From NCBI GenBank assembly GCA_934249275.1, contig CAKQKT010000072.1, positions 1 through 9,405 on the forward strand: a stretch of DNA of 9,405 bases, in the 5' to 3' direction. Position 1 is the stretch's first letter; every line of letters starts with the position of its first letter. Positions 1 to 9,405 of the stretch are shown in pieces. The notes below the pieces were generated by a model. That model saw only the letters and a program-made list of their open reading frames with translations, did not search any database and was not told the origin of the DNA. Source of the stretch: an uncultured Sutterella sp. (lineage in GTDB: Bacteria > Pseudomonadota > Gammaproteobacteria > Burkholderiales > Burkholderiaceae_F). The position numbers were made by a program, and so were the translations under genes.

Positions 1-461
1 CGCTGGTCTTCAGGCAGGTCACGTCGCTCCTGGCGCTCAGTCTCCGTGAGCTCGATGCCCGAGGCATCGAGTACCTGTATCTTGACGGCTCTGTTCCCGC
101 GACCGAGCGCGCCAAGCTCACCGAGTCCTTCAGGCTCGGCACGATGCCGCTCTTCCTGATCAGCCTCAAGGCGGGCGGCGTGGGTCTCAATCTCACGGCG
201 GCCGACTACGTGATCCATCTCGATCCGTGGTGGAATCCGGCCGTCGAGGATCAGGCTTCGGACCGCGCCTACCGAATCGGCCAGGAGCGTCCGGTCACCG
301 TCTACCGCCTCGTCGCGAAGAATACGATCGAGGAAAAGATCCTGAGGCTCCACGACTCGAAGCGTTCGCTTGCCGACGCGCTTCTCGAGGGCGCGGACAT
401 GTCGAGCAGGCTGTCGAAGGAAGCGCTTCTCGAGCTTCTGGCTTCCGGCTCGAAGATGTAA
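1..461 (+). CDS. SNF2/Rad54-family DEAD-box-like helicase, C-terminal end (partial at the window edge)
   Basis: The reading frame is open from base 3 to the TAA at 459-461, so only the last ~152 residues are present. They show the second RecA-like lobe of SNF2 ATPases: a VFRQVTSLL segment (motif IV region), YLYLDGS, the LISLKAGGVGLNLT stretch (motif V), HLDPWWNP, and QASDRAYRIGQ (motif VI with its arginines), then the usual KNTIEEKILRLH tail. Family knowledge: these are ATP-driven double-stranded DNA or nucleoprotein translocases; bacterial members include RapA and stand-alone HepA-like helicases. The protein ends about 90 residues after motif VI with no extra C-terminal domain, as in many bacterial stand-alone SNF2 proteins. 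The N-terminal lobe and any zinc-binding domain lie outside the window. It is probably a host gene bordering the retron-like island; nothing in the sequence links the two functionally. Confidence 0.93.
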   Translation, partial: LVFRQVTSLLALSLRELDARGIEYLYLDGSVPATERAKLTESFRLGTMPLFLISLKAGGVGLNLTAADYVIHLDPWWNPAVEDQASDRAYRIGQERPVTVYRLVAKNTIEEKILRLHDSKRSLADALLEGADMSSRLSKEALLELLASGSKM

Positions 462-544: not shown

Positions 545-580
545 CGCGTCCATGCACTCGGCATGTCCCGTTCTTCGCTC

Positions 581-599
581 GGACGGTCTCAAGGCCTTG
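581..599 (+). repeat. Possible degenerate copy of the array RNA unit (a1-like end only)
   Basis: The 12 bases CGGTCTCAAGGC at 584-595 are identical to unit C at 1224-1235, spanning the end of a1 and the conserved AAGG. It lies 37 bases after an extended -10-like site. Downstream (600-710) I see a GCCGGG/CCCGGC pairing (618-623 with 651-656), but no clear a2 partner and no short-loop first hairpin. It may be a decayed unit, or a chance match in a GC-rich stretch. Confidence 0.3.
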
Positions 600-716
600 T
601 CACCGCCGCGCTGATCCGCCGGGCTGCTCTTTCCGTTGATTGATCGGCTTCCCGGCAGGCTGCTGCGCTGTTCGATGATGCGGAAAAGAGTGAGGCGTGA
701 GCCTTTCTCAAAGTTG

Positions 717-725
717 TGTTAGAGT
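717..725 (+). promoter_or_regulatory. Candidate promoter for the upstream RNA array
   Basis: TGTTAGAGT is an extended -10 ending at 725. A start 7-9 bases downstream would fall at about 732-734, which is the first base of the unit A left arm (a1 starts at 734). That coincidence supports its use for array transcription. A -35 box is weak. No comparable site lies directly before units B or C, so A-B-C may be transcribed together and then processed. Confidence 0.45.
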
Positions 726-733
726 GCACTCAT

Positions 734-959
734 ATCGTTTTGGCGGCTTCAAGGTTCCGATGTCCGGCGATTCGCCGGATGTGCAATGTTCGGGAGGCTT
801 TGAAGGCCGTTTCCCGCGCCATGCCCGCATGCGCACACGCGTCGGCGGAGGGAGCCGGCCACCGCGGTAGCGGTGACCCCCTCCGCCTTCCGGAGTGCTG
901 GCAATCATGTCGCCGGACCGTTGTCCGTCCGCCGGCATAAGTTGGGCCGCTGAAACGAT
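734..959 (+). ncRNA. Retron-like msr-msd RNA, unit A
   Basis: The ends pair: 734-749 with 944-959 (16 bp including four G.U), then bulged C750 and 751-752 with 942-943. This is the a1/a2 arrangement of retron RNAs. Immediately after a1 comes AAGGTT, with a guanosine placed to be the 2'-5' branch point (inference). Hairpin 1: 763-769/773-779 (7 bp, loop ATT). Hairpin 2: 791-798 with 806-816 (CGGGA/TCCCG plus GGC/GCC). Hairpin 3: 844-852/879-887 (9 bp) capped by 860-865/870-875 with loop GGTA, and flanked by GCAC (833-836) and GTGC (895-898). Hairpin 4: 912-916/932-936. CATAAG precedes the a2 side, and a T-run (964-968) follows. Sense strand is plus because the imperfect pairs are G.U only on that strand. 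It closely resembles unit C, while the hairpin 3 sequence is unique. Confidence 0.8.
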
Positions 960-965
960 TTCCTT

Positions 966-1168
966 TTTGCTTTGACGGCTCAAGGCTCATTGTCCGGCGC
1001 TTCACCGGACGTGCTTGATCGGGAGGCAATTCTGCCGCCTTCCGATGCTTGTTCCCTTCGCGCGCCTGGCCAGCCGAATTGAACAGCTTCAATTCGGCTG
1101 CAGGCGCTCTCGCCGCTCCTGCCGAACTGTCGTTCGTCCGTCGGTAAAGGTTGAGACGTCGAAGCAAA
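966..1168 (+). ncRNA. Retron-like msr-msd RNA, unit B
   Basis: It starts only 6 bases after the end of unit A. Ends: 966-977/1157-1168 (12 bp, one G.U), a G.A mismatch, then 979-983/1151-1155 (5 bp), giving 17 pairs. AAGGCT follows a1. Hairpin 1: 992-997/1005-1010 (6 bp, same position and similar sequence as in A, with one inner pair lost). Hairpin 2: 1018-1027/1037-1046 (10 bp, one G.U). Hairpin 3 is the most perfect of the set: 1072-1083/1088-1099 (12 bp, loop CAGC) stacked on 1062-1068/1101-1107 (7 bp), 19 bp in all. Hairpin 4: 1121-1125/1141-1145 (GCCGA/TCGGT), a covarying version of GCCGG/CCGGC in A and C. A T-run (1172-1176) follows a2. Confidence 0.8.
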
Positions 1169-1215
1169 TCATTTTTCCGGCTCCTTCACCGCGTGTGCCG
1201 GATGTCATTTCAAGT

Positions 1216-1424
1216 CGTTTTGGCGGTCTCAAGGCTTGATGTTCGGTGTTTCGCCGGATTCGCACCATAGGGAAGACTCTTCTTCCGTATCCCGCACCGG
1301 GACCCGCATGCGCACAGCCGTTGTCGAAGGGAGAAAAGCTTCGCCCTCCCTTCGACTACGGGTGCTGGCATGATCTTCGCCGGAGAACTCTTTGTCCGCC
1401 GGCATAAGTTGGGCCGCCAAAACG
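1216..1424 (+). ncRNA. Retron-like msr-msd RNA, unit C
   Basis: Ends: an 11-base perfect inverted repeat, CGTTTTGGCGG (1216-1226) with CCGCCAAAACG (1414-1424), continuing through 1227-1229/1411-1413, bulged C1230 and 1231-1232/1409-1410. AAGGCT follows a1. Hairpin 1: 1242-1248/1252-1258 (two G.U, loop TTT). Hairpin 2: 1271-1276/1281-1286 (6 bp, loop CTCT). Hairpin 3: 1323-1333/1346-1356 (11 bp perfect) extended by CCGT/ACGG (1318-1321/1358-1361) and GCAC/GTGC (1312-1315/1362-1365). Hairpin 4: 1379-1383/1399-1403. The 3' part (GTCCGCCGGCATAAGTTGGGCCGC) is nearly identical to unit A. It lies 253 bases before the RT start codon, about where a single-copy retron RNA would be expected. Confidence 0.82.
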
Positions 1425-1560
1425 CATTCCTTTCTCGAACGTCTCCTCTCAAATCCTGCATGCGGTGACCCGCGAGCTTGCTGATGGGTATCGATTGCGT
1501 TGAAAATGATTGCATAAGGTGATTTTCGTGTTGAGGCGTATGCTTTTTTCCAAGGTCGCA

Positions 1561-1566
1561 TAGAAT
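1561..1566 (+). promoter_or_regulatory. Possible -10 box for the RT operon
   Basis: TAGAAT is preceded by a T-run and CCAAGGTCG (1545-1558). This loosely parallels the sequence before the -10-like sites at 539 and 720 (T-rich, AAG, then a TARARTG-type box). No good -35 is found at 16-18 bases. The 1425-1677 stretch otherwise holds no gene; the RT operon may also be read through from the array. Confidence 0.3.
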
Positions 1567-1582
1567 GGACGAACATCGCATC

Positions 1583-1605
1583 GGGCCCTGTCAAAGACGA
1601 GGCCC
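1583..1605 (+). promoter_or_regulatory. Small hairpin in the RT leader
   Basis: GGGCC (1583-1587) pairs with GGCCC (1601-1605) around a 13-base loop. It is short and may be incidental, but lies just downstream of the candidate -10 at 1561. Confidence 0.25.
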
Positions 1606-1637
1606 TGAGCGTCGGTAATTCATCAAGGCAATTGGCG

Positions 1638-1656
1638 GCCGAATACGGGATTCGGC
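1638..1656 (+). promoter_or_regulatory. Hairpin immediately before the RT ribosome-binding site
   Basis: GCCGAAT (1638-1644) pairs perfectly with ATTCGGC (1650-1656), loop ACGGG. The RT Shine-Dalgarno AAGGAG (1665-1670) starts 8 bases later and the ATG 21 bases later. A hairpin here could tune RT translation. The CCGAA/TTCGG core also resembles the a1/a2 ends of units D-F, so binding of the RT to its own leader is conceivable (inference). Confidence 0.4.
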
Positions 1657-1677
1657 TTTGCGGCAAGGAGAGGCCTC

Positions 1678-4600
1678 ATGTTCTTCATTACTAAAAATCA
1701 TTCGCCCGGCCGGGAGATCTGCCGGCAGAATCTGCTTGACCTGCTCAAGGTCGCACTCGATAACGTTGATCCGTGGCGAAGGGACTGGCTCGCCGCACTG
1801 CGCGCCGATGTGAGGACCGCCGGTGCGGACATGTTCCGTTCGGCTGCCGCCTATCTGTCGGATCTTTCCGATGAGGAGGTCTTTCAGTGGATGCTCAAAT
1901 ACCTTCGCTTCTATCCGATTGCGCAGGCGATTTGGCTCATGGGCGCGAATGAAGCCTGTCCGGCGCTTCGAGACGTTGTGGAGGAGAAGCGGCAGAGGCT
2001 TGAGCATGACTGCCCCGACTGCCTTCCTCTTCTGGGCGATCTTCAGAAATGGCCGGTGGACGAGCGGCTTCCGGCGTCCGTGGCATCCGGCCGTACGGGA
2101 ACTGTTCTCGGCCTTCATATCGCCGGCTATTTCCTGACCGGTCATCGCGATGTCCTTTCGCTTGTCAGAGGCATCATGGAGCATCCTGAGGTCGAGAAGG
2201 GGCGCGCCTCGCAGGTTTGGAGCAGGGCTGCGCGCGCTGTTGACGAGCTGGGCATTGAACCGGTGCGCTGTCGTCCGGAAGTCCTGCTGCTTTTGAAGAC
2301 ACCCGGCATTGCCGAAGCTGCGCTGAATCCCGATGCCGCCGGCGTGTTTTTTGATCTCGAAGGCGTTTCCCGGGAGTACATCGACGGCATTGCCGGGACT
2401 GTGGCAAACAGGAAGCTTGCCGGCCTTGGCGCCTTGTTGTCTCAGGGGCGCTTTGCCGACGTTGAGGAATGGGTCTCGTCATGTTTCGGCGGCATCCCGA
2501 AGGGTGCGCTGCCCGAGGACCTCAAGCGGATGCTCAGGGAGAGATGGATGCCCGAGGATCCGTTTGTCCCGAATGACTCGATCCGTTTTCCCGAGAACTG
2601 GACTCCCATGAGTCCGAGCCTTGCGGACTGGCTTGACGACTGGTTCGGCATGGAGCCTCCGCAGTGGGCGCTCGGCGAAGAGAAGGCGCTGCTTCTGGCG
2701 CTGGCCTCGGCGGATTTTGTCGCACGCTTCCCGATGCAGGTTCTGCAGGGCTTTGCGCAGCGCTTCGGGCTTCCCGCCCTCAAGGTGCTGGCAGGGCACG
2801 TGCAGACTCAAAAGATAACGGTCAAGCATCCGGAGGCTTATGAGGACCTGGATCCATGGCGTGTTTTCACGTTGATGCCGGATCACGAGGCCTTTGAGCG
2901 GATCCTGCTGCCAAGGCTTGACGACAGGTCTTTTCATTGGCTGCTTGACGAAAAGTCAAAGTCGAAGCGCCAGACCTGGCTCGCCGCTTATGTGTCGGGC
3001 CGGCCTGCGCCCGAGCGCGAGGCTCTCACGCGCGAGCTGATCGGAAAATATCAGGCCGACGCGCTTCGATGGGTGATGCCCGACAATCCTCTGTGGCTTG
3101 AGCTCGGCCTCGAAACGATTCTGCAGCCGGTTTTCTGGCAGGTTGTCGAGGCGCAGGCTTCGGCCGTCGCCGAGCTTAAGGGCCGGACCGACGCTTTCAT
3201 CAAGAGCATGCCCAAGGGGGCCGGCAAGCAGAAAAAGGTCAGGCTTTCGAATGCTTCGCTCGAAGCCAGAATGCTCGCGGTTCTCATGAACAATACGTCT
3301 CTTCGCCGTCGGTGCGTGACGGATCATCTCGAAGATCGAATGACGGAGATTTCGCATGATTGGTGGCGAGGAAATACGCGCGTGACGATTCTTGGATGTC
3401 CTGCCGTGAGTCTGCGCCAGCTGATGACCGACATGCTGATTTCGAAGACCTTCAAGGGAAGCGATGCTCTGCGAAGCAGGGTCTTTGCGCGGGTGATGGA
3501 GGAGTCCGAGAAAAATCCCGGCAGCCGAATGCGGCATCTTGCGCTTGCACTGAGGTCGACGGCGCGCTTTGACGTCTTCAACGTGAAGGATGTGACTTGG
3601 AGCAGAGAGGAGCTCGTGGCGGCGGCCTCCCTCATGAAGCCGGCCTGCGTCGACGGATATTTGAAGCAGATGGGCGATGACGGCTATGAGCTTCTTTATG
3701 AGCGCTCGCCGGATTCGCTGGTCGGACGCCACTGGGTGAGGTTCTGCTGCAGGCGTGTTCGGGAAGGTCTGTCGCTCCCTGTGCGCAAGCATGAATTTAT
3801 GCCGGAGAATGCCGATGAGATCAATTGCGAGGAGGCGGCCAAGGTCTTTCGTCTGGCGGACGGATTGACCCGCAGTCGTGTAGAGGAATGGCTGGAGCGT
3901 CTGGGCAGACATGCTCGAGACGTGCTCGAAATCGTGAGAAGCGAGGCGTCGGAAGTCCTTCCCGAGCGTTTGAACAAGATGCTCGATGAGGCGCACGCCC
4001 GTCTGGACATCGAGCCCGGAGCACGTCTTGAGGCGATACTGGCTGCCGGCAGGGCTGAGAAGTCAGGCGAGTCTCTGCGGTGGTGGCCGCCGGAGGGGCC
4101 GTCCGGCGAGGATGGCCTCGTCTACGGCGTGCTTCGCAGCCATCATCTTGTGACGCGCGCCGCGGCGGCCTGGCCTGAGGATGACGCGGTGGCGAAGAGA
4201 ACGCTTTCGCTCATGCAGGAATGCTGGGCTCACGACGCGGCATGGGTCGAAATCGCGCTGGCGATCGGGCTCGAGAATGCGCCGGTTTTGCGCGAGCTCA
4301 TCGGCCGCACCGACTGGCAAAAGGACAACGGCGAACGCTATGACGGCTGTTATGCGCGCTACAGGATTCCGAAGAAGAACGGCGGAGAGCGCGAGATCCA
4401 TGCACCTTGCGCCACGCTCAAGACGATCCAGACGCTTGTCAACGAGAGGATTCTTCAGCCGCTGGGCGCGCACGATGCCGCCTGGGGCTTTGTGCCGGGG
4501 CGGAGCATTGCCGGAAACGCTTCCTGTCATGTCGGCAAGCCCATTGTGGCCTGCGCCGACATTCATTCGTGTTTCCCGAGCGTGGGCCGCGGTCTGGTGA

Positions 4601-5154
4601 TTTCCGTGCTTAGGCGTGATCTCGGCGATCGCTTTTCGGACACGGCCATTCTGAGGCTTGCCGACATTGCGCTTGCCGAAGGCGTTCTGCCGACCGGCGC
4701 GCCGACGTCGCCAGCGCTTCTCAACCGCGTGCTTCTCAGAACGGATGAAATTCTGACGGATGCGGCCGAAAAGCGAGGCTGCACGTACACGCGTTATGCG
4801 GACGACCTTGTCTTCAGCGGAGGAGAGGAGGCCGTAGGCCTGCTGGGTGTCGCCAAGGGCGTGCTTCGCGGGATCGGTCTTGAGCTTGATCCGAAGAAGA
4901 CGAACATCTTCCGCAAGGGTCGCCGCCAGTGCTGCACGGGACTTGTCGTCAATGAAAAGGTGGGCGTGCGGCGGGATTATGCGAGAAGGCTCCGCGCGGC
5001 CGTTCATGCCGTTGCCTGCGGCCGCCAGCCGGAGCTCGACGGCAGGCCGCTCAGCATGATGATGCTCAAGGGGCACATCGCATTTTTGGAAAGCGTAAAG
5101 CCCGAGGAAGGGGCACGCCTGCGCGAAAGGCTCGCTGCGGCGATTGTTCGATAA
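1678..5154 (+). CDS. Retron-type reverse transcriptase fused to a large N-terminal region of unknown function
   Basis: 1158 residues. The start ATG has AAGGAG seven bases upstream. The RT is C-terminal, from about residue 885: IPKKNGGEREIHAP (897-910), the retron region-X motif NAxxH as NASCH (947-951), catalytic ADIHSCFPS (D961), LPTGAPTSP (1004-1012), YADD (1040-1043, catalytic D1042 and D1043) and QCCTGLVVN (1084-1092), which corresponds to the retron VTG motif with Val replaced by Cys. Motif A has CF where most retron RTs have FF. All three catalytic aspartates are present, so it should be active. Residues 1-880 are rich in Leu, Trp and Arg and look like helical repeats; I see no nuclease, ATPase, protease or transmembrane signature. 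Stand-alone retron RTs are usually about 300-400 residues, so this is a fusion in which the N-terminal part may be an effector or scaffold. RNA units of the right form lie on both sides, and the next gene is translationally linked. A phage-defence role is inference. Confidence 0.9.
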   Translation: MFFITKNHSPGREICRQNLLDLLKVALDNVDPWRRDWLAALRADVRTAGADMFRSAAAYLSDLSDEEVFQWMLKYLRFYPIAQAIWLMGANEACPALRDVVEEKRQRLEHDCPDCLPLLGDLQKWPVDERLPASVASGRTGTVLGLHIAGYFLTGHRDVLSLVRGIMEHPEVEKGRASQVWSRAARAVDELGIEPVRCRPEVLLLLKTPGIAEAALNPDAAGVFFDLEGVSREYIDGIAGTVANRKLAGLGALLSQGRFADVEEWVSSCFGGIPKGALPEDLKRMLRERWMPEDPFVPNDSIRFPENWTPMSPSLADWLDDWFGMEPPQWALGEEKALLLALASADFVARFPMQVLQGFAQRFGLPALKVLAGHVQTQKITVKHPEAYEDLDPWRVFTLMPDHEAFERILLPRLDDRSFHWLLDEKSKSKRQTWLAAYVSGRPAPEREALTRELIGKYQADALRWVMPDNPLWLELGLETILQPVFWQVVEAQASAVAELKGRTDAFIKSMPKGAGKQKKVRLSNASLEARMLAVLMNNTSLRRRCVTDHLEDRMTEISHDWWRGNTRVTILGCPAVSLRQLMTDMLISKTFKGSDALRSRVFARVMEESEKNPGSRMRHLALALRSTARFDVFNVKDVTWSREELVAAASLMKPACVDGYLKQMGDDGYELLYERSPDSLVGRHWVRFCCRRVREGLSLPVRKHEFMPENADEINCEEAAKVFRLADGLTRSRVEEWLERLGRHARDVLEIVRSEASEVLPERLNKMLDEAHARLDIEPGARLEAILAAGRAEKSGESLRWWPPEGPSGEDGLVYGVLRSHHLVTRAAAAWPEDDAVAKRTLSLMQECWAHDAAWVEIALAIGLENAPVLRELIGRTDWQKDNGERYDGCYARYRIPKKNGGEREIHAPCATLKTIQTLVNERILQPLGAHDAAWGFVPGRSIAGNASCHVGKPIVACADIHSCFPSVGRGLVISVLRRDLGDRFSDTAILRLADIALAEGVLPTGAPTSPALLNRVLLRTDEILTDAAEKRGCTYTRYADDLVFSGGEEAVGLLGVAKGVLRGIGLELDPKKTNIFRKGRRQCCTGLVVNEKVGVRRDYARRLRAAVHAVACGRQPELDGRPLSMMMLKGHIAFLESVKPEEGARLRERLAAAIVR

Positions 5155-5160
5155 GGAGGT
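5153..5160 (+). promoter_or_regulatory. Shine-Dalgarno overlapping the RT stop codon
   Basis: AAGGAGGT shares its first two bases with the RT TAA stop (5152-5154) and sits 4 bases before the ATG at 5165. This near-perfect site fixes the start of the downstream gene, rather than the in-frame TTG at 5144, and makes translational coupling with the RT likely. Confidence 0.85.
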
Positions 5161-5164
5161 TGAT

Positions 5165-6100
5165 ATGAGCAAGCACAAGGCAAAACGCAAGAAGACGGTG
5201 CAGCCCGAGCTGGCTGCGCAGGAGGAGCTGCGCGACCTCAAGGGAAGAGTTGCATTGAGCATGAGCCTGCTGCATTTGGCGGCAAGCGTCATCAAGAAGA
5301 AGGCGCCGGAGGTTCTGTCTGTTCTTGAAGAGGATCTCAAGCGCTTTTATCCCGAAAAGCATGCTTATTGGACGCAGGAGCTGGCCAAAAAGCATGAGGT
5401 TCCCATGCGGGCCGACCTGTTGTCGGTTGTGCTGGCGCACGTGCTCGCAGAGAACTCCAAGAGTCCCGTGCTGGTGATGGATCCGGATTCCGCAGGTGCG
5501 CCGATCGGCTGGCAGATAACGGCGCGAGACAAGTTCGGTCTGGGCGTCAAGCCGGTTCCGGATTGTAAAAGGGAGGAACCCGGTGAGTTCGTGGTCTCGA
5601 TGCGGGCGCAGCTTTCTCAATCTGAGGAGCCGCTGTCTCAACCCGATTTCATGCCTCTGACGCTCTCGTACACGGTTGATCCCAAGCCGGCGCTCAGGCT
5701 GGAGTGGCACGGCGGCATTTCTCGGGATGTTGTTCTCTCGGGAGGACTTGACGTCAAGCTGGTGCATCAGCGGGAGGACGGCCCTGTGGGACGAAAGCTC
5801 AAGGGAAAGGCATCCGATGCGGCGGGCGCGGTGGTTTTCGAAGTGGCTTCGAAGGACATGCTGTATCTGATGGCTTCGGATGACGCGGTTCTTTATTTCG
5901 AGAAAAACGGCTTGCTGCTGAGCGCGCCCGTGCCGGAGCCCGACGGCTCTCCCGTCGGTGTCAGGGTGCACGCGCTCCGGGCCAAGGATGACGGCTGCCG
6001 GCTGTATCTGAGCAGGCGAGTTCTCGAGGCGTTCCAGGCTGAATGCCCGTGGCTGGGCGAAAAGCGTCCGGCAGGCTTGGATGCGGGAGCGGCCGCGTAA
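5165..6100 (+). CDS. Retron-locus accessory protein of unknown function
   Basis: 311 residues, starting MSKHKAKRKK, directly after the RT gene (10 bases between stop and ATG) with a strong ribosome-binding site. I do not recognise a family. What can be seen: a very basic N-terminus (K/R-rich first 10 residues), a helical stretch to about residue 95 (ELRDLKGRVALSMSLLHLA, then a Lys/Glu-rich helix), and a C-terminal two thirds with alternating hydrophobic residues suggesting beta structure (for example GVRVHALRAKDDGCRLYLS). There is no signal peptide, membrane segment, Cys-rich cluster or evident catalytic motif. The coupling suggests equal production with the RT and a direct role with it: effector, inhibitor, or binder of nucleic acid through the basic end. 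Unit D of the second RNA array begins only 9 bases after its stop codon. Confidence 0.85.
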   Translation: MSKHKAKRKKTVQPELAAQEELRDLKGRVALSMSLLHLAASVIKKKAPEVLSVLEEDLKRFYPEKHAYWTQELAKKHEVPMRADLLSVVLAHVLAENSKSPVLVMDPDSAGAPIGWQITARDKFGLGVKPVPDCKREEPGEFVVSMRAQLSQSEEPLSQPDFMPLTLSYTVDPKPALRLEWHGGISRDVVLSGGLDVKLVHQREDGPVGRKLKGKASDAAGAVVFEVASKDMLYLMASDDAVLYFEKNGLLLSAPVPEPDGSPVGVRVHALRAKDDGCRLYLSRRVLEAFQAECPWLGEKRPAGLDAGAAA

Positions 6101-6109
6101 CCTGCAATG

Positions 6110-6312
6110 ACGGCGTTTGCTTTCGAAGGTTGCTGACCGGCGCTTCGCCGGTTTTGAGGTGCGGAGCCTTTTACCGCTTTCCGCGCTTTCTTTCTGCCTC
6201 GCATCTTCATGGTCGCGGCCGCAGGCTGGCCGCTCGAATGAAGATGGTCGGCATCATGCTCTCCGGGCCGCAGACCGGTGTCTTGCGGTTCAAGTTCGGG
6301 AGCAAACGCTGT
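6110..6312 (+). ncRNA. Retron-like msr-msd RNA, unit D
   Basis: Ends: 6110-6127 pairs with 6295-6312 (18 bp, three G.U, no interruption), the longest closing stem of the set. CGAAGGTT marks the end of a1. Hairpin 1: 6136-6142/6146-6152, ACCGGCG with CGCCGGT, loop CTT; its outer pair is A-T where unit A has T-A, a compensatory change. Hairpin 2: 6161-6167 with 6176-6184. Hairpin 3: 6202-6210/6238-6246 (9 bp perfect) capped by GCGGCC/GGCCGC (6215-6220/6228-6233). GGCATCATG follows. Hairpin 4: 6268-6272/6284-6288. CAAGTTCGGG precedes the end; the T-run 6312-6316 follows. It begins 9 bases after the accessory gene, so it may be carried on the operon mRNA 3' end. Confidence 0.8.
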
Positions 6313-6390
6313 TTTTGAGTCATGTCCTTCGTCGGGCGCGTTTTCGGCGAGGGGAACGCAACGGATCAATTTCTGCGACAATGTGTCGCG

Positions 6391-6592
6391 GACGCTCATT
6401 CCCGAAGGTTCGAGACCGGTGTTTCGCCGGTCGAGAGGCGCAGAATTCGCTGTTGCTTTTCTGCGTTTTCCCTTCTGCCGGGCATTCTCCACGGTCGGGA
6501 CCGGTGGCGGTCCCTCAAGTGGACAATGCCGGCATTCATGCTGCACAACTAAAGGCCTGTGTCTGTCAGTGCAAGTTCGGGAGGTGTGCGTC
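6391..6592 (+). ncRNA. Retron-like msr-msd RNA, unit E
   Basis: Ends: 6399-6406/6576-6583 (8 bp, one G.U), then bulged G6584, 6397-6398/6585-6586, a T.T mismatch, and 6391-6395/6588-6592 (5 bp). CGAAGGTT follows. Hairpin 1: 6414-6421/6425-6432 (8 bp, loop TTT). Hairpin 2: 6439-6445/6459-6465 (7 bp). Hairpin 3 has three blocks: 6477-6481 plus 6483-6486 with 6525-6533, CCAC/GTGG (6489-6492/6519-6522), and GGGACCG/CGGTCCC (6497-6503/6508-6514). GGCATTCATG follows, then hairpin 4 (6542-6546/6569-6573). A perfect 6-bp hairpin (6375-6380/6384-6389) lies directly before the unit, and a T-run (6602-6606) after it. Confidence 0.78.
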
Positions 6593-6609
6593 ACCTGTTT
6601 GTTTTTGAC

Positions 6610-6661
6610 GTGTTTGCTGCCGAAGGCTGTTGTCCGTCGGTTCAAGTTCGGCGGCGGGCAC
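6610..6661 (+). ncRNA. Mini-unit G: closing stem kept, inner hairpins missing
   Basis: 6610-6624 pairs with 6647-6661 over 15 continuous bp, four of them G.U. It keeps CGAAGGCT at the end of a1 and GGTTCAAGTTCGG before a2, with GTCCGTCGG as in the 3' part of units A and B, but only 22 bases lie between the arms. It looks like a unit that lost hairpins 1-3 by internal deletion while keeping its ends, or a distinct small RNA. Confidence 0.6.
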
Positions 6662-6676
6662 ATATTTTGTAGGACT

Positions 6677-6856
6677 CCCGCTCCCGAAGGTTCTCGGCAG
6701 GCGTTTCGCCTGTCATGCGGTGCGAAGGCCTTTACGGCTTTTCGGCTCCGTCCTTCTGCCTCGCGGCTTTACGACCCGCTGCGCTCAGTAAAGCCGTTCG
6801 GCATTCATATCTCGCGAACGAAGACCAATGGCTGTTGGTTGCAGTTCGGGAGCGGG
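6677..6856 (+). ncRNA. Retron-like msr-msd RNA, unit F
   Basis: Ends: CCCGCTCCCGAA (6677-6688) with its exact complement TTCGGGAGCGGG (6845-6856), 12 bp. CGAAGGTT follows a1. Hairpin 1: 6696-6703/6707-6714, GGCAGGCG with CGCCTGTC (one G.U, loop TTT); the inner bases differ from D and E but pairing is kept. Hairpin 2: around GCC/GGC at 6728-6730/6736-6738, flanked by GAA and TTT. Hairpin 3: CGGCTTTAC/GTAAAGCCG (6764-6772/6788-6796, 9 bp). GGCATTCAT follows. Hairpin 4: ACCAA/TTGGT (6824-6828/6835-6839). A T-run (6863-6867) follows a2. Shortest complete unit, last of the second group. Confidence 0.78.
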
Positions 6857-6897
6857 CGGTTCTTTTTCGAGGCCTTTTGCAAAGTCCGGATACAACA

Positions 6898-6928
6898 AAG
6901 CCCGGACGGCACATGCGCTTCCGGGCTT
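6898..6928 (-). terminator. Terminator hairpin of the WYL-like gene, between convergent units
   Basis: AAGCCCGGA (6898-6906) pairs perfectly with TCCGGGCTT (6920-6928), 13-base loop. It lies 26 bases past the stop of the minus-strand gene and is followed in that direction by the T-rich TTGTTGT. It may also stop plus-strand transcripts from the second RNA array (TTATTGTTTTA follows on that side). Confidence 0.6.
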
Positions 6929-6954
6929 GACGCTTATTGTTTTATCGGTATGGA

Positions 6955-7254
6955 TCAGATCTGTTCGTAGATCTTGGAGAGCTGGGCGAAGACGGCCTTG
7001 TCTTCTTCAGAAGCTTCGCGATAGGCTGCGTCGGCAAAGGCGACGCCGGCCATGTCGGCTGCAGTGTAGAAACGGAGCTTTTCGGTCACGCCGGAGTTGC
7101 TGCCGCCGCCGACCTGGAAGCCGATCATCTTGATTTCATTGGTGGGCGTGAGACCGCAGGCATAAGGGACGACCACGCGGTCGAAGCCGTGGTAGGCGAA
7201 TTCGAGGGCCTTCTTTTCCTTGATCGCCTGAGCGATCGTGTCAACTGTCGTCAT
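6955..7254 (-). CDS. Small WYL-like protein
   Basis: 99 residues, starting MTTVDTIAQAI. I chose the ATG at 7254 because AAGGAG lies 8 bases upstream; an in-frame ATG at 7290 has no such site and would translate through that ribosome-binding site. The pattern of an N-terminal helix with AIKEKKALEFAYHG, then DRVVVPYACGLT, IGFQVGGGSNSG and a C-terminal KLRFYTAADM resembles a family of ~100-residue stand-alone proteins with a WYL-like (SH3-type beta) fold, in which Y.G..R.V.P...G and Q.GG.S.SG recur. WYL domains are known as ligand-sensing modules, often for nucleic acid, in larger regulators; what the short ones do I do not know. It is convergent to the RNA array and has its own terminator. It may be a host gene at the island border, or a regulator of the island. 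Confidence 0.75.
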   Translation of the reverse strand: MTTVDTIAQAIKEKKALEFAYHGFDRVVVPYACGLTPTNEIKMIGFQVGGGSNSGVTEKLRFYTAADMAGVAFADAAYREASEEDKAVFAQLSKIYEQI

Positions 7255-7279
7255 TTCTTTTCTCCTTAATCGGAAGTTT

Positions 7280-7298
7280 CCGCCGAACATTTCGGCGG
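7280..7298 (-). promoter_or_regulatory. Hairpin in the leader of the WYL-like gene
   Basis: CCGCCGAA (7280-7287) pairs perfectly with TTCGGCGG (7291-7298), 3-base loop. It sits about 13 bases upstream of the Shine-Dalgarno of the minus-strand gene and could be a leader attenuator or an operator palindrome. Confidence 0.45.
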
Positions 7299-7323
7299 CG
7301 TGCTTTAAGTATCACTCCTGTCA

Positions 7324-7329
7324 ATTGTA
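7324..7329 (-). promoter_or_regulatory. Candidate -10 box for the WYL-like gene
   Basis: On the minus strand this reads TACAAT, 69 bases upstream of the ATG. A TTGACA (7319-7324) overlaps it but has no fitting -10, and the -35 region for TACAAT is weak. Confidence 0.35.
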
Positions 7330-7629
7330 AACGGCATGATTTAGCTCAAATGTTTCGCTAGAGGCAGTGTTTTTGCTAACGGTGACTATTGCGAGTTTGC
7401 TGTAATTGGGGTGTCTTGGTGTGTTTTTGTTGAGTTTTGCGTGCAGATGGCGGAAATGTAAAGGATTGTCCTGATATTGGTCCGCGGGCTTGCCCGGGAT
7501 TTGCGGGTGAAGGCGTGCATCGGACGCGGTCCGCGGCCTGAAGGCCCCGGCGGCGATCCTGCTAAAAGATTGTTCCTAAGATGTTTCTCGCAGAGGAAAA
7601 AGTAATACCTCAAAGGTTTGCCGAATACT
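7330..7629. other. Intergenic stretch without a recognisable gene
   Basis: I find no supported gene. The first half is T-rich with short TTTTTG tracts. The second half has three small GC palindromes: CGGGC/GCCCG (7485-7489/7492-7496), CGGAC/GTCCG (7521-7525/7529-7533) and GGCC/GGCC with loop TGAA (7535-7538/7543-7546). No unit of the RNA array family (AAGGYT plus paired ends) is seen here. Confidence 0.5.
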
Positions 7630-7659
7630 TTAACTTTACGGAAGGACGTTTGCTAGAGT
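7630..7659 (+). promoter_or_regulatory. Promoter of metQ
   Basis: TTAACT (7630-7635) and TAGAGT (7654-7659) are separated by 18 bases, and the -10 is extended by TGC (7651-7653). This is the best-formed promoter in the window and gives a transcript starting near 7666, some 240 bases before the metQ ATG. Confidence 0.6.
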
Positions 7660-7665
7660 TCTTTC

Positions 7666-7907
7666 ACGGCCTTCTGAGAGACGGTCGAACGGAAACGCCC
7701 GGCATGACCGGGCTCGCCTTTGAACGAACCCGAGGGGCTCTCGGCGAAGGCGACACTTCTCCGGACAGTCGGCCCGAATCCTCTTCGGCGCATGCGGCAT
7801 CCTCGGCCGCGCGGACTTGTCTGATGTTTCTGCGAACCGGACGGCCAATGTTCCCGTCCGACAAAACCAAACAACTGAAAAACGCATCCAACATTGTGAG
7901 AAACAAA
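7666..7907 (+). other. Long structured 5' leader of metQ
   Basis: About 240 bases with several hairpins: GCCCGG/CCGGGC (7697-7702/7708-7713, loop CATGA) and CGGACGG/CCGTCCG (7838-7844/7854-7860), followed by an A-rich run up to the ATG. I compared it by eye with SAM-I and TPP riboswitch consensus sequences and found no match. The frame of metQ stays open back to 7581, but the part before 7908 reads as low-quality, arginine-rich sequence without protein character. Confidence 0.4.
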
Positions 7908-8717
7908 ATGAATCTCTCCCGACTTTTCGCACCCATCGCTCTTGCATCCGCCATCGCTCTTTCGGGCATTTCCGGCAGCGCTCTTGCCGACACGACGCTT
8001 CGCATCGGCGTGACGCCCGTTCCGCACGCGGACATCGTCAACTTCATCAAGCCGCAGCTGGCCAAGGAAGGCGTGAAGCTTGATGTGGTGGAATTCAACG
8101 ACTACATCCAGCCGAACCTCGCGCTCGACAGCGGCGACCTTGATGCCAACTACTTTCAGACGATTCCGTACCTTGAGGAAATGATCAAGTCTCACGGCCT
8201 CAAGGTGAAGATTCTCGTGTCCGTGCATCTTGAACCGATGGCTCTCTATTCCAAGAGGGTGAAGGCTCTGGCCGACATCCCGGTGGGCGCCAAGGTGGCC
8301 GTGCCGTCCGATCCGACGAACGAAGGCCGTGCGCTGAAGGTGCTTGAACATGCCGGCCTCATCAAGCTCAAGGACGGCGCAACGCTTCTGTCCGGCATCG
8401 GTGACATCGTGTCGAACCCGAAGAAGCTGAAGTTCGTCGAGCTTGAGCCCGCACTGCTTCCGCGCGCTCTTGACGACGTGACGGCTGCCGTGATCAATGC
8501 CAACTACGCGCTTGAAGCCGGCTTCAACCCCGCCAAGAACGCCATTGCACTTGAGGAAAAGAGCTCGCCCTTCGGCAATGTCGTGGTAATCCGCTCCACG
8601 GAAACCCGCAAGGACAAGCTGGAAGCCTTCGACAAGCTCAAGAAGGCGATCACGTCTCCCGACGTGAAGAAATTCATCGAAGACAAGTACCAGGGCGGCG
8701 TCCTGCCGGTCTTCTGA
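7908..8717 (+). CDS. metQ: MetQ-type methionine-binding protein of an ABC transporter
   Basis: 269 residues. Periplasmic substrate-binding protein of the MetNIQ (NlpA) family, which captures D- or L-methionine for import. Start at 7908 because it gives a clean signal peptide: NLSR, a hydrophobic core (LFAPIALASAIALSGISG) and cleavage after SALA, before DTTLRIGVTPVPHADI. That is followed by family hallmarks: VEFNDYIQPNLALDSGDLDA, NYFQTIPYLE, VAVPSDPTNEGRAL and INANYALEAG. Length is normal for the family (~270). There is no lipobox cysteine at the cleavage site, unlike E. coli MetQ, so it should be a soluble periplasmic protein. The ribosome-binding site is weak (GTGAG). metN and metI are not next to it; instead a BisC/TorA-like reductase follows, suggesting methionine or methionine sulfoxide as the ligand (inference). 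Confidence 0.92.
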   Translation: MNLSRLFAPIALASAIALSGISGSALADTTLRIGVTPVPHADIVNFIKPQLAKEGVKLDVVEFNDYIQPNLALDSGDLDANYFQTIPYLEEMIKSHGLKVKILVSVHLEPMALYSKRVKALADIPVGAKVAVPSDPTNEGRALKVLEHAGLIKLKDGATLLSGIGDIVSNPKKLKFVELEPALLPRALDDVTAAVINANYALEAGFNPAKNAIALEEKSSPFGNVVVIRSTETRKDKLEAFDKLKKAITSPDVKKFIEDKYQGGVLPVF

Positions 8718-8742
8718 TCGTCATAGAATCACAGCTGAACTT

Positions 8743-8779
8743 GCAAGGCCGGTCCGGGTTCGCCCGCACCGGCCTTTGC
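8743..8779 (+). terminator. Hairpin terminator after metQ
   Basis: GCAAGGCCGGT (8743-8753) pairs with ACCGGCCTTTGC (8768-8779, one bulged base), capped by CGGG-TTCG-CCCG (8755-8766). The stem is strong but the T-run is short, so readthrough into the next gene (ATG 20 bases further on) is possible. Confidence 0.55.
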
Positions 8780-8799
8780 GTCGATAAGGAATACCGAAG

Positions 8800-9405
8800 A
8801 TGACCCGAACCGACAGGCTCATTGCCGCCCACTGGGGAGTTGCCCGCATTCGAGAGAATAACGGCCGCCGTGAAGTCGTTCCCATCGCGGAGGATCAGAA
8901 GCCTTCCGAACGGATGGCCGATTATCTGGCCGGGCGCGACAGTCCCGAACGCCTGCTTGCACCGAAGGTTCGCGAAGGCTATCTGAAGGCCTGGCGCGAA
9001 GGACGCAATCCCGCCGAAACTCGAGAGGGGCGCGGACGCGAAGCGTTTGTCGAGGTCGAGTGGAACGATGCGATCGAAATTGCCGCGCATGCCATTGAGC
9101 AGACTTATGCCCAGTACGGTCCGTCGGCCGTCTGGGGCCGCTCGTACGGCTGGAAGAACACGGGCGAGGTCAACAACCCGATCGGACTCCTGAGGCGTCT
9201 TCTGATGCTCGAGGGCGGGTTCGTGCAGACGTTCAATTCCTATTCGACGGCTGCCATTGCCGCCATTCAGAAGGTGATCGCCGACATGGGCGATCCGGAC
9301 GTGCCGGTCGTCGACGAAGTGATCGAGCACGCCGAACGCGTCGTGCTCTGGGGCGCGGATCCCGTCGTCACGAACGACATTGCCTGGACGACGACGCTTC
9401 ACGAT
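8800..9405 (+). CDS. Molybdopterin oxidoreductase of the TorA/BisC (DMSO reductase) family, N-terminal part (partial at the window edge)
   Basis: 202 residues are visible, starting MTRTDRLIAAHWGVARI, with AAGGA 9 bases upstream of the ATG. Family features: an HWG start, VREGYLKAW, an RG.EAFVEVEWNDAIEIA block, WGRSYGWKNTGEVN near residues 113-126, FNSYSTAA, and VVLWGADPVVTNDIAW, typical of bis-MGD enzymes that reduce TMAO, DMSO, biotin sulfoxide or methionine sulfoxide. There is no N-terminal Fe-S cysteine motif, as in TorA and BisC, and no twin-arginine signal, which suggests a cytoplasmic BisC-like enzyme. Known: E. coli BisC reduces biotin sulfoxide and free methionine-S-sulfoxide. Placement 82 bases after metQ makes methionine sulfoxide reduction after import plausible. 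The substrate cannot be decided from this fragment. Confidence 0.88.
   Translation, partial: MTRTDRLIAAHWGVARIRENNGRREVVPIAEDQKPSERMADYLAGRDSPERLLAPKVREGYLKAWREGRNPAETREGRGREAFVEVEWNDAIEIAAHAIEQTYAQYGPSAVWGRSYGWKNTGEVNNPIGLLRRLLMLEGGFVQTFNSYSTAAIAAIQKVIADMGDPDVPVVDEVIEHAERVVLWGADPVVTNDIAWTTTLHD

What the first reader, a model, noticed from the sequence alone, without database searches (positions are those of the whole stretch)
734..6856. One retron-type RT flanked by two arrays totalling six to seven different msr-msd-like RNAs
Units A, B, C (734-1424) and D, E, G, F (6110-6856) share one architecture: closing inverted repeat, AAGGYT right after the left arm, and (except in G) hairpin 1 with a 3-7 nt loop, hairpin 2, a long hairpin 3, a small 3' hairpin 4, then the right arm and a T-run. 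Known retrons, as far as I know, have a single RNA upstream of the RT. A multi-RNA locus could make a set of different msDNAs from one enzyme. Structure seen directly; the msDNA interpretation rests on the retron-type RT between the arrays.
Basis: partly seen in the sequence, partly recalled or inferred. Interest (0 to 1): 0.95.

Follow-up and report, generated by a model that had tools for sequence, protein, structure and literature searches.

The report
One retron enzyme, six template RNAs
A bacterial DNA fragment carries one retron reverse transcriptase flanked by six complete structured RNA units of the sort found singly beside related enzymes, so this enzyme would likely make a set of different DNA hairpins, probably to sense viruses, where textbook retrons make one.

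Summary
Six full msr-msd-like units (A-C before, D-F after) and one stub (G) surround a 1158-aa retron RT and a 311-aa ORF. A covariance model built only from D, E, F found A, B, C and single units upstream of related RTs, with no other hit at E<=0.02 in 249 kb. A relative of the same genus as the window's nearest held genome (RT domain 58% identical, same helicase neighbour) has four units before its RT.

The pattern is wider. Five planctomycete loci with type XIII RT and SWIM genes carry two units each. One genome (G520) has seven, five with no RT in the 14-18 kb fetched. Its units share constant frame ends around a ~24-bp msd stem, different in each unit yet nearly fully paired: a likely repertoire of msDNAs.

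msDNA synthesis, active units, sensing and effector are inferred. The RT is nearest to PADLOC RT_XIII, but type XIII partner genes were not found, so I call it a type XIII-related retron. Ten searches of an open-licence library, which lacks key papers, showed no natural multi-template retron.

The parts
734..959 (+). msr-msd-like unit A (hairpin 1 at 763-779)
   Evidence: closing arms; z -3.6; R1 hit 736-962 E 4.5e-3
966..1168 (+). msr-msd-like unit B
   Evidence: arms; z -5.2; R1 hit 967-1172 E 2.4e-5
1216..1424 (+). msr-msd-like unit C (hairpin 1 at 1242-1258)
   Evidence: arms; z -6.9; R1 hit 1215-1430 E 1.4e-3
1678..5154 (+). retron RT, 1158 aa: almost all-helical N-terminal solenoid in the model (aa about 9-880) plus C-terminal RT domain (aa about 885-1150, NASCH 947-951, YADD 1040-1043)
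5165..6100 (+). ORF2, 311 aa, accessory protein; homologue in L098 (26% id) and probable distant kin of the X ORF that follows RTs of the wider class
6105..6317 (+). msr-msd-like unit D (hairpin 1 at 6136-6152)
   Evidence: arms; z -5.5; in model R1
6390..6597 (+). msr-msd-like unit E (hairpin 1 at 6415-6431)
   Evidence: fold; z -5.5; in model R1
6610..6661 (+). stub unit G: closing stem, AAGG and one short hairpin only
   Evidence: fold; z -3.9
6677..6856 (+). msr-msd-like unit F (hairpin 1 at 6697-6713)
   Evidence: arms; z -4.7; in model R1
3..461 (+). C-terminal part of an SNF2-type helicase gene; shared neighbour in L098, probably not part of the system
   Evidence: Pfam Helicase_C; SNF2 domain in the L098 homologue; four genus members have the helicase without RT or array beside it

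Best explanation
This is a retron-class locus in which one reverse transcriptase is flanked by six complete msr-msd-like RNA units and would likely reverse transcribe each of them into a different branched msDNA. Shown: the RT, the units, their homology to a single RNA upstream of related RTs, and conserved elements (AGG at the inner end of the left arm, hairpin 1 with core GGYGNWUCGCC in most units, AGU near the inner edge of the right arm in most units). Inferred mechanism: each RNA closes on its terminal stem; the RT binds hairpin 1; the 2'-OH of a G in AGG primes synthesis near the AGU side of the stem; the RT copies hairpins 4 and 3 and stops before hairpin 2, leaving msDNAs with a shared msr and different DNA hairpins. 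By analogy with known retrons, the RT-msDNA complexes would hold an effector in check (ORF2 and/or the RT's helical N-terminal solenoid). Damage to or modification of any one msDNA by a phage would release it, so several msDNAs widen the range of triggers. The planctomycete kin, with constant frames and variable paired stems, suggest that stem diversity itself is selected.
For: Retron RT. Unit homology and pairing. One unit upstream of related RTs. Four-unit array in the syntenic relative L098: with ORF2 conserved. Two-unit loci with type XIII RT and SWIM genes in planctomycetes. Seven units with constant frame ends and a variable, nearly fully paired stem in one genome. L030 units a and b: 147 of 156 aligned positions identical outside the msd, while in the 18-bp stem core 8 pairs changed on both sides with all 18 pairs kept in both units.
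Against: No msDNA or RNA data. R1 detects only 1 of the 4 L098 units at E<=1; the other three rest on arms, folds and a looser hairpin 1, and the weakest L098 arm score was reached by 1 of 10 shuffles of its region. Unit G is a stub, so copies can decay. In the fitted alignment 11, 3 and 14 pairs (D/E, D/F, E/F) are unpaired in one of the two. Units occur without a nearby RT. ORF2 has no known family and a poor fold model (pLDDT 43), so the effector is a guess. The stretch at 575-595 resembles the start of unit C but I found no rest of a unit there.
Confidence: 0.7

Rival explanations
1. Only one unit is the working msr-msd; the others are duplicates that drift or act as spare copies, and the array is a by-product of tandem duplication.
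For: Stub G, the unit-like remnant near 575-595, similar subsets A/C and D/E/F, varying copy number (6 here, 4 in L098, 1 in eight kin).
Against: All six full units fold better than 100 of 100 shuffles, with paired changes between paralogues (D/E 6, D/F 12, E/F 6 pairs changed on both sides; 11, 3 and 14 unpaired in one of the two). In G520 seven units keep frame and pairing while stems differ, which drift would not give.
Confidence: 0.17
2. The units are non-autonomous mobile elements that an RT in the same cell spreads, so that arrays and orphans are insertion products and not a sensor repertoire.
For: Orphan unit in G017 between a molybdopterin oxidoreductase and leuA (genes named by my reading), with no such RT in that genome at E<=1e-5; units in G520, G529 and G550 with no RT within the 14-18 kb fetched.
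Against: Copies differ most in the msd stem, with compensatory changes, whereas transposition makes near-identical copies. In 4 of the 5 two-unit planctomycete loci one unit stands before SWIM and one before RT; the fifth, L030, has both before SWIM. Target duplications were not looked for.
Confidence: 0.08
3. The units are cis-acting regulatory or terminator structures of the operon, unrelated to reverse transcription.
For: Most right arms are followed by T-rich sequence; units flank genes.
Against: Terminator scan not above shuffles. Homologues sit upstream of RT genes: hairpin-1 motif rate 0.085 per kb upstream of RTs against 0.007 per kb elsewhere (the motif was drawn up from units at RTs, so this is not independent for those loci). 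Copies also lie away from any RT.
Confidence: 0.04

Closest known systems
Standard retron (e.g. Ec86/Eco1), as described in PMC6868368 (passages)
   Same: Retron RT with NAXXH and YADD; RNA with complementary ends, short msr hairpins and one long msd hairpin; a G at the inner end of the left arm.
   Different: Six units instead of one; half of them downstream of the RT; AGG in place of the usual TAGC; CTG in place of VTG; RT fused to an ~880-aa helical solenoid (model).
Type XIII retron (PADLOC models RT_XIII, HEAT-ARM_XIII, SWIM_XIII, WGR_XIII; that these make up the type is read from the model names)
   Same: RT_XIII is the best PADLOC model (228 bits); R1 from the window's own units finds the RNAs of L038 and L047, which have SWIM_XIII and HEAT-ARM_XIII genes (E 4e-4 and 3e-3).
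   Different: Score less than half that of the two planctomycete RTs scanned (505 and 516 bits). No SWIM, WGR or HEAT-ARM hit on ORF2; the RT profile shows no similarity to the HEAT-ARM_XIII protein of L038.
Engineered retron arrays (multi-site editing; Gonzalez-Delgado 2024, seen only as a reference-list title; content recalled)
   Same: Several msr-msd templates served by one RT.
   Different: Engineered; here natural, with diverged units.
MoxR-vWA conflict systems (PMC7159879, passages)
   Same: Some kin of this RT class lie beside a MoxR-type ATPase and a DUF2201/VWA gene (L005; L099 and L102 by my reading).
   Different: No such gene was found among the window proteins scanned.

Membership tests
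Retron (general) | RT with YxDD catalytic core and retron-specific NAXXH (region X) | tested here: met
   YADD at 1040-1043; NASCH at 947-951, with N, A and H invariant in the 21-row alignment A2 (definition)
Retron (general) | VTG triplet opening region Y | tested here: inconclusive
   C-T-G at 1086-1088; a relative (P0054) has VTG; 14 of 16 validated retron RTs have it
Retron (general) | RNA with complementary ends, short msr hairpins and a long msd hairpin | tested here: met
Retron (general) | Priming guanosine at the inner end of the left arm (usually TAGC) | tested here: inconclusive
   AAGG in 7 of 7 window units; CAGG or TAGG in 7 of 8 kin and CAGA in L005 (CAGA is also that of Eco2); priming itself untested
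Retron (general) | Branched RNA-linked msDNA made in cells | not testable with these tools
   needs an experiment
Type XIII retron | RT_XIII | tested here: met
   best of 55 PADLOC models, 228 bits, best stretch in the RT part
Type XIII retron | SWIM_XIII or WGR_XIII plus HEAT-ARM_XIII partner genes | tested here: not met
   ORF2 hits none; for the RT only 25 of 55 PADLOC families were shown, so a weak HEAT-ARM hit there is not excluded, but its profile does not match the L038 HEAT-ARM protein; the partial helicase of the window was not scanned with PADLOC, a homologue in L130 matches DpdE
Group II intron or DGR RT | group II maturase family score | tested here: not met
   TIGR04416 53.9 bits against cut-off 300; DGR models were not tested apart

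The most novel reading that the evidence does not exclude
Retrons of the type XIII clade are repertoire systems: one RT serves a family of template RNAs, in clustered arrays and as orphan templates elsewhere in the chromosome. All templates share a constant recognition frame, while the ~24-bp msd stem is hypervariable but kept nearly fully paired, so the cell displays many different double-stranded DNA hairpins at once, each a separate tripwire for phage enzymes. The window is the most crowded cis array seen here (six units), G520 the largest set (seven units, five of them in trans).
Probability: 0.42. Interest if true: 0.95.

Novelty: new variant of a known kind. Interest (0 to 1): 0.87.

Why it matters
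Retrons are described as one RT, one ncRNA, one msDNA and an effector. A natural system with many diversified templates per RT would turn the retron from a single tripwire into a panel, with an obvious parallel to other repertoire immune systems. It makes an open question testable: what feature of msDNA is sensed. It also offers a natural RT that may accept variable stems within a fixed frame, useful for multiplexed DNA production.

Tried and rejected
Palindrome idea: planctomycete stems looked rich in restriction-site-like palindromes; a shuffle test on 26 stems gave 13 stems with a 6-bp palindrome against 13.9 expected. Rejected.

Phage origin of the units: no match of either array in the phage collection.

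RT in viruses, phages, plasmids: one viral-contig scan confirmed none; 42 phage and 460 plasmid records match, none with one place over 80% of the query.

N-terminal solenoid as a fused HEAT-ARM_XIII: no profile match to the one protein tried, though Foldseek gives HEAT-type karyopherins at weak scores beside retron RTs.

Helicase as a partner: 5 of 12 genus genomes have it at E<=1e-50; the four besides G069 were fetched and show no array beside it. A homologue scores as DpdE, not SWIM.

G062 hit of R1 (E 0.03): lies in probable coding sequence without hairpin 1. G055 hit (E 0.42, 37 nt) not followed. G523 hit of the planctomycete pattern: no complementary arms. Dropped.

R1 over 67 family genomes used strict filters and missed G069's own units, so absence there means little. 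First planctomycete pattern had a wrong gap length and found nothing; corrected.

Structure of ORF2: pLDDT 43, unusable. RT model: mean pLDDT 77, low in parts of the RT domain.

Literature: ten searches listed no paper on a natural multi-template retron. Passages only were seen of PMC6868368, PMC12548924, PMC8934634, PMC7159879, PMC8867640, PMC12262390 and PMC13405049; the term XIII occurs in none of the five where I looked for it. Mestre 2020, Khan 2024 and Gonzalez-Delgado 2024 are not held, so this is 'not found', not 'not in print'.
Full report
WHAT IS THERE. The window holds, on the + strand, the end of a helicase gene (3-461), three RNA-like units A, B, C, a 1158-aa ORF (1678-5154), a 311-aa ORF2 (5165-6100), units D, E, a stub G and F, then unrelated genes: a short ORF on the other strand, an NlpA lipoprotein and a molybdopterin oxidoreductase. 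The 3' flank (6892-9404) aligns at 82-86% DNA identity to genome G017, which is in the family of the Mesosutterella porci genome G001 and in the genus of G069. No genome is held for the window itself.

THE ENZYME. The C-terminal quarter of the long ORF is a retron RT. Pfam gives RVT_1; PADLOC's best model is RT_XIII at 228 bits. NCBIfam's best is retron St85 RT, below its cut-off. A profile of ten relatives hits 16 PDB sequences at E<=0.001, of which 14 are retron RTs. Catalytic YADD and the retron-specific NAXXH are present; VTG is CTG (definitions from passages of PMC6868368). AlphaFold2 (mean pLDDT 77) shows residues up to about 880 as an almost all-helical solenoid before the RT domain; Foldseek finds retron RTs and, weakly, HEAT-type karyopherins. 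67 homologous proteins were listed: eight nearly full-length, P0009 over 82%, and 58 matching over 34% of the query or less, mainly the RT part. Such RTs are rare in held genomes: 14 of 300 relatives at E<=1e-20, 5 of 67 in the family at E<=1e-40, 1 of 399 drawn from the order at E<=1e-60.

THE UNITS. All seven carry AAGGYT at the inner end of the left arm. Six share closing stem, hairpin 1, hairpin 2, long hairpin 3, hairpin 4 and right arm. Each folds more stably than all of 100 dinucleotide shuffles. I built a covariance model (R1) from D, E and F alone and searched 16 loci, 249 kb, both strands. Outside its training set it hit B (2.4e-5), C (1.4e-3), A (4.5e-3), one unit of L098 (2.3e-3), and single units in L005 (4.8e-5), L001 (4.5e-3), L004 (8.3e-3) and L014 (0.018). 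In L005 and L004 the hit ends 0-1 bases before the RT ORF; in L001 it overlaps the first possible start of that ORF; in L014 it lies about 340 bases before it (ORFs). The next matches were 17-nt pieces at E 0.33. So the window's units are homologues of an RNA that sits upstream of related RTs. Across the 11 units, 48 of 62 pairs changed on both sides and 90.9% of cells pair (alignment fitted to the model).

Conserved elements: between left arm and hairpin 1 the kin keep AGG (7 of 8; AGA in L005), and hairpin 1 keeps GGYGNWUCGCC in most units. In 92 RT loci this hairpin occurs within 3.6 kb upstream on the RT strand in 21; by this strict motif only the window and L098 have two or more. The rate is 0.085 per kb there and 0.007 elsewhere. 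The motif was drawn up from units at such RTs, and it misses the planctomycete units, so copy numbers are lower bounds. Of 16 wider-class and outgroup loci scanned closely, eight (L001, L004, L005, L010, L014, L099, L100, L102) have one copy upstream and none downstream of the RT; the other eight show no upstream copy, some with little upstream sequence held.

A SYNTENIC RELATIVE. Genome G069 (locus L098) has the same order: SNF2 helicase, 1360 bp, RT, ORF2. The RT domain is 58% identical to the window's; intact kin P0006 and P0008, which group with it, are 33% identical over the whole protein. The 1360 bp hold four units with long closing stems (192-237 nt span), hairpin 1 in recognisable form, and z -3.1 to -8.9. 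R1 finds only one of the four. ORF2 is 26% identical (E 3e-14). No comparable stem follows ORF2 there. Its RT frame is broken in this assembly. The window's ORF2 also relates to the X ORF that follows RTs of the wider class (hhalign probability 88%, E 2.9e-6).

AN ORPHAN IN THE SAME GENUS. R1 found one unit in G017 (E 6.5e-11), between a molybdopterin oxidoreductase and leuA (my reading; fold), in a genome with no match to this RT at E<=1e-5.

THE WIDER PATTERN. R1 over 84 loci (1.23 Mb) also hit planctomycete loci L038 (4e-4) and L047 (3e-3) and, below significance, two adjacent places in L030 (0.15, 0.32). By PADLOC, L030 has RT_XIII (516 bits) and SWIM_XIII genes; L038 and L047 have SWIM_XIII and HEAT-ARM_XIII genes, and their RTs were not scanned. 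L030 has two tandem units: 147 of 156 aligned positions are identical outside the msd and 51 of 69 within it; in the 18-bp stem core 8 pairs are changed on both sides with all 18 kept in both (on the six-row alignment the msd count is 6 double changes, 13 unchanged, 4 unpaired). Paludisphaera soli (L025; RT_XIII 505 bits, SWIM_XIII 577 bits) has one unit before SWIM and one before the RT; their msd differs at 2 of 72 positions, which form one compensatory pair as read.

A frame pattern (GTTGTTCTTT...GTGAACG) over 148 relatives of that genome matched in 13 genomes, 24 places; the control pattern matched none. One place (G523) lacks complementary arms and is dropped. Of the remaining 23, G520 has 7, G529 3, G550 3, G457 2, and eight genomes one each. 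I fetched eight regions from three of these genomes. Loci L156, L159 and L161 have unit, SWIM, unit, RT by tblastn; the other five regions hold units but no RT, SWIM or ARM match at E<=1e-10 in 14-18 kb, among them a tandem triple in G520. Whether those genomes have further RTs was not searched. All seven G520 units are 94 nt long over the matched frame; the first 14 and last 12 positions are invariant, whereas the stem pairs show up to four pair types per position. Of the first 25 stem positions, 23 are paired in 7 of 7 units, the others in 5 of 7 and 6 of 7. The 5' stem arms are 21-71% identical between units, the 90 nt before the frame 66-79%.

EVOLUTION. On an RT tree of 74 rows the window and L098 lie in one starred clade of eight rows (for the other six no DNA is available), and L030 and L025 in a separate planctomycete clade. 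So multi-unit loci arose more than once, or are ancestral and were often reduced; the tree's own count of four changes treats the six unknown rows as single and is not used.

HOW IT WOULD WORK. One RT recognises the shared frame and makes several msDNAs that differ in their hairpin. In known retrons phage enzymes that touch msDNA can be triggers; for example, GATC sites on the ncRNAs of Asa1 and Squ1 go with triggering by a phage methyltransferase (PMC12548924, passages). Several different hairpins would widen what can be noticed. Nothing here shows msDNA, defence, trigger or effector.

STATUS. Retron membership: the sequence features are met apart from VTG and the priming site, which are inconclusive; the msDNA is untestable here. 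Type XIII membership: RT is nearest, partner genes were looked for and not found, so it is a type XIII-related retron. The multi-template arrangement is, as far as my searches reach, undescribed.

Noticed in passing
L155 9266-9848, L157, L158 (G520); L160 (G529); L162 (G550): Planctomycete msr-msd-like units, three of them in tandem, with no RT, SWIM or ARM match within the 14-18 kb fetched; frame shared, stems different.
   Followed up: partly
L111 9149-9339: Solitary unit between (by my reading) molybdopterin oxidoreductase and leuA genes in a close relative of the window organism that has no such RT at E<=1e-5.
   Followed up: partly
window 560-730: Possible decayed unit: 575-595 is 81% identical to the start of unit C, but the fold and the motif scan show no hairpin 1 there.
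   Followed up: partly
L101 2483 and 8132-10717, compared with L102: The hairpin lies 5.6 kb before a shortened RT ORF, whereas in L102 it lies 226 nt before a 1226-aa RT ORF: looks like an insertion into the RT gene.
   Followed up: no
L005 6579-9794; L099; L100; L102: RTs of the wider class lie beside a MoxR-type ATPase and DUF2201/VWA gene (L005; L099 and L102 by reading) or an N6/N4 DNA methyltransferase (L100; L099 by reading): a possible RT-linked conflict system.
   Followed up: partly
window 3-461; L130 10290-14366: The neighbouring helicase family scores as DpdE in PADLOC (542 bits for the L130 copy) and occurs without an array beside it in four genus members.
   Followed up: partly
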